Shown: positions 8,753-11,135 of the stretch, piece after piece
How the letters are laid out: each line of letters starts with the position of its first letter
Numbering within the stretch: the stretch's first letter is position 1
NCBI GenBank assembly: GCA_017652105.1
Contig: JAGCBP010000020.1
Location: forward strand, 1-41,934
Length of the DNA: 41,934 bases
Direction: 5' to 3'
Origin: Candidatus Saccharimonadota bacterium
Lineage (GTDB): Bacteria > Patescibacteriota > Saccharimonadia > Saccharimonadales > Saccharimonadaceae
Position numbers and translations under genes: made by a program
Notes under the pieces: generated by a model
What the model saw: the letters and a program-made list of their open reading frames with translations, nothing else
Told to the model about the DNA's origin: nothing
The model's database searches: none

Positions 8753-9745
8753 TTAGCCTCTTGGCGGCTCGCCATCCGGCTCACCTAAAAGTTTCTTTGA
8801 CTTAATTTCGTATCTTTTCCCATTCACCGGCGACACATAGTAGTCCTCATTTAAGAGATTTACAAACATGGTGAGATCTTTGTCATCCATGATGATAATT
8901 GAACCATCATCATCGGTCATGAGATCTAGCTGCATTTCATCGGCGTAATCTAGCAACTTGTCCTGCGGCATTTCCGAAGCAATATCCATTGCCTGCACTT
9001 TTTTGAGTAGTGGCTTTTTGTCCGCTAGCAGCGAGTCTAGAGTCAAACCCTCAGAGAAGGAAAGTTTGTATTTCTCGGTCAACTCTTTTGCCTTGGCCTC
9101 GGCTAGCACCTGCGATTTAAAATCATACTGAAATAGATTCTCAAACTTAGCTTGGTTGAACACAATTATTGTACCATCCACAATCGCCACTTGATTGTCC
9201 TCTGGCATTTTGAGGGCAATTTCCGCCGAGAACGGCTCAAAGCTCTCACCGTTAATCTCCCACGAGGAGGCTCCTTTTAGCGCCGAAGAAGCCGGCAAAA
9301 TCTTAGCAATATAAAAAGTTTTCATCCCATTCTCACCTGGATAAGTAAACTTGGCGATAATCCCTTTGACCTTCTTAAAGTCGTACTCGTTTTCCGAAAA
9401 ATAATCAATGTCTTTATATTCATGCTCAATCAAATGAATCAAAGTATCCGCCCGGTCCACCTTGGAAAGGGAAGCCCGATAAACCACATTTTCCTCGCCA
9501 TCGGCTTTTTCGTAATCACGGCATTCCAAGCCTTTTTCCGCCTCATTAATAATATAAGACACTGCTTCTTGCATAAATACCGACTTTACCGCCCCAGTCA
9601 ACTTATCCGAATAGCGGATTTTGTATGGCGTGTAGTTTTTGTTAAAGAGAAACAGCTCTGCCGACACATTATTTTTGATTGCATCTACCTGATTTGCCCA
9701 CAAGAACACGTCAAACGGCTCACCGAAATCACTAGAATTTTCCAT
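8753..9745 (-). CDS. KwaB / DUF4868-like protein
   Basis: 330 residues, soluble. The match to the DUF4868 (Kiwa KwaB) family is by pattern: KTFYIAKILPASSALKG, then a strand pair VAIVDGTIIVFNQAKFENLFQYD (about 185-208), a central helical region, and the family-like end FVNLLNEDYYVSPVNGKRYE. In the Kiwa anti-phage system KwaB works with membrane protein KwaA; no KwaA is adjacent here, so this is a solitary homologue whose role is uncertain. The start is supported by GTGAGGT before the ATG and TATAAT at 9774-9769. A 19-base palindrome lies just upstream of that -10 box. Confidence 0.6.
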   Translation of the reverse strand: MENSSDFGEPFDVFLWANQVDAIKNNVSAELFLFNKNYTPYKIRYSDKLTGAVKSVFMQEAVSYIINEAEKGLECRDYEKADGEENVVYRASLSKVDRADTLIHLIEHEYKDIDYFSENEYDFKKVKGIIAKFTYPGENGMKTFYIAKILPASSALKGASSWEINGESFEPFSAEIALKMPEDNQVAIVDGTIIVFNQAKFENLFQYDFKSQVLAEAKAKELTEKYKLSFSEGLTLDSLLADKKPLLKKVQAMDIASEMPQDKLLDYADEMQLDLMTDDDGSIIIMDDKDLTMFVNLLNEDYYVSPVNGKRYEIKSKKLLGEPDGEPPRG

Positions 9746-9775
9746 AATTTACCTCACTTATTTCCTCTATTATAC

Positions 9776-9794
9776 CACAGATTTTAAATCTGTG
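9776..9794. promoter_or_regulatory. Perfect 9+1+9 palindrome, operator candidate
   Basis: cacagattt-t-aaatctgtg reads identically on both strands. It lies immediately upstream of the -10 box (9774-9769) of the KwaB-like gene, where a repressor would block RNA polymerase. No cognate regulator is identified; it could also be a short RNA hairpin. Confidence 0.45.
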
Positions 9795-9913
9795 TGTTCG
9801 GTAATTACAACACAAAAGGGAACAAAAGTAAACCCCACTTTGTTCGGTAAACTTTTCCCCAGTTGTGGAAAACTCCCAGGTTGCAAAAAACCCAAAAAAG
9901 TCCAAAAAAGCAC

Positions 9914-9942
9914 TTGCATTATTTGAAAAAACATAATATACT
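9914..9942 (+). promoter_or_regulatory. Promoter upstream of the rsmH structured element
   Basis: TTGCAT (9914-9919), 17-base spacer, TATACT (9937-9942). Predicted start near 9949, about 50 bases before the 240-nt folded element and 300 bases before rsmH, which has its own -10 box. Confidence 0.6.
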
Positions 9943-9997
9943 GAAGTTAGTGGCAACATCATACAAAAACCACAAATCAAAAAAGTACATTAAAAAG

Positions 9998-10237
9998 GTT
10001 TGAGAACGGCCAACTAGGAGTTTCAGCGCGCATCAAATCTCAAGCGAGATGCGAAACCAAAGTCGCGCGTACCTTCTTTAACACACCTCCCAATAAAAAC
10101 TCTATAGGTCGTTAAGACCAAAGCACAATAAGTCTCTCAACGGCTACAATTTTTATAATTGTGGTAGATAAATTGTGTTAAAACAAAAATCAAACAGAAA
10201 CAAACCCGCTGAAGTTTCTAGTTGAGCGTTCTCAAAC
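9998..10237 (+). ncRNA. Candidate structured RNA, 240 nt, upstream of rsmH
   Basis: The ends pair over ~31 positions: 9998-10028 (begins gtttgagaacg, ends tttcagcg) with 10207-10237 (begins cgctgaag, ends cgttctcaaac), with three small mismatch patches. Inside are three hairpins: cgcat..ctc-aagc-gag-atgcg (about 10027-10051), ggtc-gttaa-gacc (about 10108-10120), and ctacaatt..aattgtggtag (about 10144-10167). This gives a closed multi-branch fold. A 17-spaced promoter lies 50 bases upstream. I could not match it to tmRNA, RNase P, SRP or 6S RNA. It could be a cis-regulatory leader of the division operon, a free ncRNA, or a small transposon-like element with inverted ends. Strand is inferred from the promoter. 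Confidence 0.5.
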
Positions 10238-10253
10238 GTTGTATAATATAAAT

Positions 10254-11135
10254 ATGGAGAAATTACATATCCCTGTATTACTATCAGAAGTTTTGGCAGG
10301 TCTCCAGCCGCAGTTGAACGATAAATATTTGGATCTCACAGCTGGCTACGGAGGACACGCCGAAAAAATTTTGGATGTAACACAGAATTATAAAGATTCC
10401 GTATTGATAGATAGAGATGAGTACGCCTATGAGTATCTAAAAGAGAAGTTTAAGGGCAGAAGTATCACTATCCTTCACAGCGATTTTTATAGCTCTATGC
10501 TACAGCTTTTAGAGAGTGGAAAAACTTTTGATATAGTGCTAGCGGATTTTGGAGTTTCTTCACCGCAGCTAGACATGGGCGAAAGGGGTTTTTCGTTTAC
10601 CAAAGAAGCTCCCCTAGACATGCGCATGGATCAGCGGCAGAAGCTTACGGCGGATCAAATCGTCAACCGCTGGAGCGAACGAGATTTAGGCGATCTATTT
10701 ATTAAATACGGCGAAATCCCCAAAGGTTCCGCCAGAATGTACGCCAGAGTCATCGTTCATCACCGCCCGATTCATTCCACCATTGAGCTCGCGGAATTAA
10801 TCCGTACTAGAATTCACGGATATTCCAAAACTCACCCAGCTACGCGTGTCTTTCAAGCCATCAGAATCGCGGTTAATGACGAGCTAGGAGAAATTGAAAG
10901 ATCTCTCCCGCTTCTGCCAGATTTATTAAATCAAAACGGCAGGCTCGCAATTATCACTTTTCACAGTCTAGAAGATCGGTTGGTCAAAGAGTTTCTAAAA
11001 TCAGAAACTTCAAATGGCGAGGAATCGAGATTAGAAGTAGAGAACAAAAAACCAATCACTGCGGGAAATGAGGAGTTGTTTATCAACCCGCGCTCTCGCA
11101 GCGCCAAATTGCGCGTTGCCAGAAAACGGAATTGA
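10254..11135 (+). CDS. rsmH: 16S rRNA (cytosine-1402-N4)-methyltransferase
   Basis: SAM-dependent enzyme (formerly MraW) that modifies C1402 in the ribosomal P site; it usually opens the division/cell-wall cluster, as here. 293 residues, near the normal ~310. It starts MEKLHIPVLLSEVLAGL; the SAM site is DLTAGYGGHAEKIL; further family motifs are ADFGVSSPQLD, GFSF followed by LDMRMDQ, and ITFHSLEDRLVKEFL; the C-terminus is NPRSRSAKLRVARK. An ATG 15 bases upstream was rejected because TATAAT (10242-10247) lies six bases before this one, giving a leaderless mRNA. The preceding 240-nt element and distal promoter may provide a second, longer transcript. Confidence 0.97.
   Translation: MEKLHIPVLLSEVLAGLQPQLNDKYLDLTAGYGGHAEKILDVTQNYKDSVLIDRDEYAYEYLKEKFKGRSITILHSDFYSSMLQLLESGKTFDIVLADFGVSSPQLDMGERGFSFTKEAPLDMRMDQRQKLTADQIVNRWSERDLGDLFIKYGEIPKGSARMYARVIVHHRPIHSTIELAELIRTRIHGYSKTHPATRVFQAIRIAVNDELGEIERSLPLLPDLLNQNGRLAIITFHSLEDRLVKEFLKSETSNGEESRLEVENKKPITAGNEELFINPRSRSAKLRVARKRN

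What the first reader, a model, noticed from the sequence alone, without database searches (positions are those of the whole stretch)
9949..10237. 240-nt multi-branched element with its own promoter ahead of the division operon
A ~31-position terminal helix encloses three clear hairpins, and a 17-spaced promoter lies 50 bases upstream. rsmH has its own leaderless promoter right at the 3' edge, so the element may be a separate ncRNA, or a leader that switches the long operon transcript. I recognise no Rfam-type signature.
Basis: partly seen in the sequence, partly recalled or inferred. Interest (0 to 1): 0.75.

Follow-up and report, generated by a model that had tools for sequence, protein, structure and literature searches.

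The report
Saccharibacteria-wide structured RNA before rsmH
A roughly 240-base folded RNA sits directly in front of the ribosome-modifying gene rsmH and its cell-division operon in nearly all sampled Saccharibacteria genomes; it matches no catalogued RNA family, so it looks like a new RNA class whose job still has to be tested.

Summary
The 240-nt element (9998-10237) folds far better than shuffles (z -7.9), is single-copy, has no Rfam match, and recurs in 369 of 392 genomes of the order, covering 148 of 156 genera, and in 4 of 5 genomes of sister orders; outside the class 3 weak matches in 342 genomes, none near rsmH. Wherever the flank could be tested it lies immediately upstream of rsmH on the same strand: 49/49, 4/4, 74/74. 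In most of the order it lies between mraZ and rsmH (43/49), usually behind an rrn-type boxA (38/49 against 4/98 random windows). In the window's genus mraZ is gone (0/36), the RNA has its own promoter, and rsmH a leaderless one. Best reading: ancestrally a cis-acting leader of the rsmH/dcw transcript, built like a pre-rRNA processing domain, here uncoupled into a discrete ncRNA. Mechanism is inferred; no expression data were available.

The parts
9914..9942 (+). promoter P1 of the RNA (TTGCAT, 17 nt, TATACT)
   Evidence: sequence; TTGC...-10 pattern in 30/30 same-genus loci; not listed by the generic scan
9950..9973 (+). 5' hairpin GTGG...CCAC, alternates with AGCG...CGCT in relatives
   Evidence: alignment A1, (read by eye; not scored by RNAalifold)
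9985..9996 (+). boxA-like GTACATTAAAAA abutting the helix; degenerate here
   Evidence: core largely invariant in A1; rrn-boxA matrix significant in 38/49 distant loci but in only 1/30 loci of this genus
9998..10028 (+). closing helix, 5' strand
10029..10053 (+). hairpin CGCATC...GATGCG (GTGG...CCAC in most other lineages)
10044..10066 (+). pseudoknot: hairpin loop GCGA 10044-10047 with TCGC 10063-10066
   Evidence: 48 distant loci score 10.97, re-dealt partners 8.86 sd 0.30, 0 of 2000 as high
10081..10105 (+). unpaired core ACACACCTCCCAATAAAAACTCTAT (contains CACCTCC)
   Evidence: CACCTCCC in 30/30 same-genus and 44/49 distant loci, 0/4 in other orders
10107..10119 (+). small variable hairpin GGTC...GACC
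10124..10177 (+). stem P3: CACAAT/ATTGTG plus inner stem; invariant AAGTCTCTCAACGGC on its 5' side; apical hairpin shortened in this species
   Evidence: AAGTCTCT in 30/30 and 47/49
10180..10206 (+). A/C-rich, nearly G-free linker
10207..10237 (+). closing helix, 3' strand (carries AGGTGA or a close form in 47/54 loci of other genera and orders, lost here)
10242..10247 (+). -10 box of promoter P2 for leaderless rsmH
10254..11135 (+). rsmH (16S rRNA m4C1402 methyltransferase gene by family knowledge), first gene of the dcw-type operon
   Evidence: ORF; homologues downstream of the RNA in 49/49 loci

Best explanation
Shown: this is one copy of an undescribed structured RNA family of the class to which the window belongs (Saccharimonadia/Saccharibacteria by the titles of named records): a long helix joining both ends, an H-type pseudoknot, a near-invariant unpaired C-rich tract, a third stem and an A/C-rich linker, always directly upstream of rsmH. 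Inferred: ancestrally it is part of the mraZ-rsmH transcript. An rrn-type boxA in front of it would load NusB/S10 and associated factors on the polymerase; the two ends then zip into a leader-trailer-like helix as in pre-16S RNA, and the unpaired tract is read by a partner (protein or RNA) not yet known, so that elongation into, or translation of, rsmH and the dcw genes depends on the RNA's state. The helix is long enough to be cut by RNase III, releasing a ~240-nt RNA. In the window's genus mraZ was lost, the RNA acquired promoter P1 and rsmH is made from a leaderless promoter P2, so there the discrete RNA is probably the main product and any cis effect comes from P1 read-through. My estimates: a real conserved RNA family >0.95; cis effect on rsmH/dcw ~0.5; the boxA-Nus step ~0.4.
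For: Distribution 369/392 genomes, 148/156 genera, 4 of 5 genomes of other orders of the class. Synteny with rsmH 49/49, 4/4, 74/79 with the other 5 cut within 67 nt by the end of the stretch held. Covariation: 476 cells with changes on both sides against 139 +/- 12 in shuffles and 56-108 in slid versions. Pseudoknot covariation. mraZ directly upstream in 43/49 and 4/4. boxA matrix trained on seven rrn leaders of the same order: 38/49 at p<=0.05 and 32/49 at p<=0.01, against 0/49 just downstream and 4/98 random windows at p<=0.05. No good -10 between RNA and rsmH start in 23/31 loci outside the family, so co-transcription is likely needed there. In 4/4 other-order loci rsmH's ATG stands 7-8 nt behind AGGTGA/AGGTAA inside the closing helix; the 16S 3' end of seven genomes of the order is GGATTACCTCC. 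Precedent for boxA plus leader-trailer helix in pre-16S RNA: PMC10250234 (abstract and introduction read).
Against: In the window's genus the boxA match is not significant (1/30) and the rrn boxA of two genus members (AGTTTAACAATT) differs from the element's GTACATTAAAAA; boxA was significant in only 1 of 4 loci of other orders. A -10-like sequence lies between RNA and rsmH in 18/20 loci of the window's family, which would bypass cis control. No terminator or alternative fold was shown. No transcript or protein evidence at all. Synteny may partly reflect the general conservation of the dcw cluster.
Confidence: 0.42

Rival explanations
1. Independent trans-acting ncRNA embedded in the dcw locus: the pseudoknotted scaffold presents the C-rich tract to a protein or to mRNAs (the tract contains CACCTCC, complementary to Shine-Dalgarno sequences), and the place next to rsmH is incidental.
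For: RNA and its unpaired tract stay conserved after mraZ loss and after rsmH gained its own promoter; own promoter pattern in 30/30 loci of the genus.
Against: Never found away from rsmH in any testable locus; CACCTCC is absent from 4/4 loci of other orders, where only CTCCACCTCA is kept; no consistent complementarity to 16S or 23S rRNA.
Confidence: 0.3
2. Translational switch for rsmH: the closing helix sequesters the rsmH Shine-Dalgarno sequence AGGTGA until a ligand or ribosome-assembly state opens it.
For: AGGTGA-like motif in the 3' strand in 47/54 loci; ATG 7-8 nt behind it in 4/4 loci of other orders.
Against: In most of the order the start codon lies further downstream while AGGTGA is still kept (only 13/54 have any in-frame start within 16 nt); the motif is lost in the window's genus, where rsmH appears leaderless.
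Confidence: 0.12
3. Autoregulation by RsmH: the core imitates the 16S strand around C1402 (ACACACCGCCCG) and binds RsmH.
Against: Not significant for the order consensus (p 0.23 with both 16S segments) nor for two other-order cores (p 0.09-0.89); CACCTCCC is absent from the other orders.
Confidence: 0.05
4. A mobile inverted-repeat element (MITE-like) or a chance palindrome.
For: Long terminal inverted repeat.
Against: Single copy in the genome; fixed position across the class; compensatory evolution.
Confidence: 0.01

Closest known systems
UpsM, 5' leader sRNA of the dcw cluster, Rhodobacteraceae (PMC5089854; abstract and passages read)
   Same: Structured ~200-nt RNA at the head of the dcw cluster, from its own promoter, proposed both as leader and as trans-acting sRNA.
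   Different: UpsM lies upstream of mraZ, ends in a strong intrinsic terminator, and is reported only from Rhodobacteraceae; here the RNA lies between mraZ and rsmH, no terminator was found at its 3' end by the scan, and it has a pseudoknot and, in most lineages, a boxA.
mraW RNA motif, RF01746, Actinomycetales (one table row seen in PMC2864571)
   Same: Candidate cis-regulatory structure linked to the same gene (mraW = rsmH); the gene link beyond the name is recalled.
   Different: Different phylum; no cmscan match even at E<=10.
rrn leader: boxA plus leader-trailer helix of pre-16S RNA (PMC10250234; abstract and introduction read)
   Same: boxA in front of a long helix that joins both ends of the RNA.
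   Different: Here it encloses ~240 nt of non-ribosomal RNA upstream of a protein-coding operon.
boxA in the suhB leader, Enterobacteriaceae (PMC5725501; passages read)
   Same: An mRNA leader that uses boxA outside rRNA operons.
   Different: [quoted passage not shown] here boxA precedes a large structured RNA.

Membership tests
Rfam families (4227 models) | score at or above the gathering cut-off | tested here: not met
   window and 12 distant loci without a match at the element; best sub-threshold match 21.1 bits against 60 needed, a yeast snoRNA
mraW RNA motif RF01746 | match to its covariance model | tested here: not met
   not among matches with E<=10
UpsM | upstream of mraZ with an intrinsic terminator at its 3' end | tested here: not met
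   RNA is downstream of mraZ in 43/49; the only terminator-like site in 9600-10600 is at 9605
rrn-type boxA leader | boxA like that of the rrn leaders of the same order or genus | tested here: inconclusive
   met in 38/49 distant loci, not in the window's genus (1/30; rrn boxA of two genus members differs)
rrn-type boxA leader | NusB/S10 binding | not testable with these tools
   needs biochemistry
RNase P RNA | match to RF00010 | tested here: not met
   RNase P RNA is at another locus of the genome (G000:C16)
6S RNA | match to RF00013 | tested here: not met
   no match in the window's genome; 0/20 genomes over cut-off; that search rings in 8 of 14 control genomes, over cut-off in 4
tmRNA | ARAGORN call | tested here: not met
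   window has two tRNAs only
riboswitch | ligand-dependent change of fold | not testable with these tools
   no alternative structure identified
MITE / transposon | several genomic copies | tested here: not met
   one full copy, other matches are its own inverted arm or short weak matches

The most novel reading that the evidence does not exclude
A class-wide Saccharibacterial RNA made like a miniature pre-rRNA (boxA, leader-trailer helix, pseudoknotted core), excised from the mraZ-rsmH transcript and acting as a discrete, near-universal regulator that ties ribosome maturation (Nus factors, RsmH) to cell division and wall synthesis in these reduced episymbionts.
Probability: 0.2. Interest if true: 0.88.

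Novelty: new variant of a known kind. Interest (0 to 1): 0.74.

Why it matters
A structured RNA found in ~94% of sampled genomes of an order (148 of 156 genera) and absent from Rfam is rare. It sits at the head of the operon for division and cell-wall synthesis in reduced, host-dependent bacteria, and its pseudoknot and near-invariant tract give concrete targets for mutation. It also offers a natural experiment: lineages with co-transcription, with a leaderless rsmH promoter, and with mraZ lost.

Tried and rejected
Known RNAs: Rfam scans, RNase P, 6S, tmRNA by ARAGORN on the window only. 16S mimicry as RsmH autoregulation: suggestive for the window core, not significant for the order consensus or two other-order cores. 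Base-pairing of the core with 16S: no better than shuffled 16S. With 23S-side sequence: single 8-11-nt matches, not conserved between the four genomes looked at. MITE: rejected. Shine-Dalgarno sequestration as the general mechanism: AGGTGA is kept where the start is far away, so retained only as a rival. Three weak matches outside the class (L156-L158): no rsmH found beside them. One pattern match titled as an archaeon (L233) is not the RNA. Rows dropped before counts: two sub-threshold matches (one saved as L101); reverse-strand self-matches of the palindromic helix; L074 from the pseudoknot statistic because the parser failed (48 of 49); L117, L076 and L091 from the -10 count (51 of 54). The automated pseudoknot parser picked a wrong stem in some loci (for example L114, L103). 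The single-genus alignment alone gave only a modest covariation term; the distant alignments made the case.

Full report
What is there. The window holds, on the + strand, promoter TTGCAT-17-TATACT (9914-9942), a small hairpin (9950-9973), GTACATTAAAAA (9985-9996), and then a 240-nt element (9998-10237) closed by a ~31-position helix, followed within 5 nt by TATAAT and, six bases on, the ATG of rsmH. Its fold is 7.9 standard deviations better than shuffles. It is single-copy in the genome and matches no Rfam family.

It is conserved. blastn found it in 56 of 60 genomes of the same genus, the window's own included, at E<=2e-7, and in none of 39 genomes of other families better than 7.6e-4. A covariance model from 30 same-genus copies then found 287 of 392 genomes of the order. 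A second model from 32 distant members found 369 of 392, 148 of 156 genera, 303 of 316 good-quality genomes. In a phylum sample of 379 genomes it hit 31 of 32 of the order and 4 of 5 of other orders of the class, and gave three weak matches among the remaining 342; those three show no rsmH beside them.

It is always in front of rsmH. 49 of 49 diverse loci, 4 of 4 of other orders and 74 of 79 named loci have rsmH directly downstream on the same strand; in the other five the stretch held ends within 67 nt of the RNA. mraZ is directly upstream in 43 of 49 and 4 of 4. The window's genus lacks mraZ (0 of 36 genomes; 21 of 24 genomes of other families have it).

The structure is real. On 49 distant members, 56 of 59 pairs of the model structure show changes on both sides; 476 cells have double changes against 139 +/- 12 in shuffles and 56-108 in slid controls. 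That alignment was fitted to the model, which favours it. The hairpin near the 5' helix has a loop complementary to a strand just downstream (AGGG/CCCT, AAAGC/GCTTT, CCGAA/TTCGG, GACGA/TCGTC and so on): an H-type pseudoknot, with mean score 10.97 against 8.86 (sd 0.30) when partners are re-dealt between loci, 0 of 2000; re-dealing does not correct for relatedness. By eye the four loci of other orders keep it with yet other sequences.

The unpaired core. In most of the order it reads AACACCTCCCAAAACTCCACCTCACACATAAGTCTCTCAA. CACCTCCC occurs in 44 of 49 distant and 30 of 30 same-genus loci but in 0 of 4 of other orders; CTCCACCTCA occurs in 47 of 49 and 4 of 4, but in 0 of 30 of the window's genus. 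Different parts are therefore kept in different lineages. It contains an anti-Shine-Dalgarno-like CACCTCC; the 16S tail in seven genomes of the order is GGATTACCTCC.

boxA. A matrix from seven rrn leaders of the order detects a boxA in the 110 nt before the element in 38 of 49 distant loci (32 at p<=0.01), median 22 nt before the helix; controls 0 of 49 and 4 of 98. The rrn boxA instances were chosen as best matches to an E. coli-like string recalled from memory, and one of the seven is doubtful. In the window's genus the abutting GTACATTAAAAA is largely invariant but not significant (1 of 30), and two rrn leaders of the genus read AGTTTAACAATT.

Transcription. In 18 of 20 tested loci of the window's family a -10-like sequence lies between RNA and rsmH start; in other families and orders 8 of 31. 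In loci of other orders rsmH's ATG stands 7-8 nt behind AGGTGA/AGGTAA in the closing helix (4 of 4). I read this as an ancestral leader that was later bypassed by an internal promoter in the window's family, while the RNA itself stayed under selection.

Mechanism. The anatomy (boxA, then a helix that ties both ends, then an internal domain) copies that of pre-16S RNA, where boxA recruits NusB/S10 and RNase III cuts the leader-trailer helix (PMC10250234, introduction). boxA is also used in an mRNA leader, suhB (PMC5725501, passages). I therefore favour co-transcriptional control of rsmH/dcw with release of a discrete RNA; every step after the anatomy is inference.

Literature. Searches for the mraW motif, Saccharibacteria with RNA terms, mraZ/rsmH/boxA/dcw, UpsM and Saccharibacteria with mraZ/rsmH/mraW listed no description of this RNA; subscription papers are largely outside that library. 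A human-microbiome RNA survey (PMC8040213, searched by term) does not mention Saccharibacteria or TM7 in its main text; its supplements were not looked at.

Noticed in passing
whole genome G000 and 35 same-genus genomes: mraZ is absent from all 36 genomes searched of the window's genus although it heads the dcw cluster in most other Saccharibacteria.
   Followed up: partly
L072-L121 and L152-L155, 3' strand of the closing helix: AGGTGA or a close form is kept in 47 of 54 loci even where no start codon is near; it may form a conserved purine-purine mismatch in the helix rather than a ribosome site.
   Followed up: partly
L075, L078, L088, L089, L097, just before the element: An extra hairpin seems to lie between the boxA region and the closing helix (read by eye).
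   Followed up: no
L156, L157, L158: Weak matches outside the class are mainly an ACAAAAACAAAAA-type tract, in two of them close before an ATG; such tracts also flank rsmH starts and may be a general translation-start feature of these bacteria.
   Followed up: no
L122-L128, 16S 3' end: The 16S tail reads GGATTACCTCC instead of the usual GGATCACCTCC (recalled) in all seven genomes read.
   Followed up: no
window 8753-9745 (-): The divergent gene upstream of P1 is also found next to the RNA in two loci of other genera (L120, L121, 70-75% identity); function not examined.
   Followed up: no
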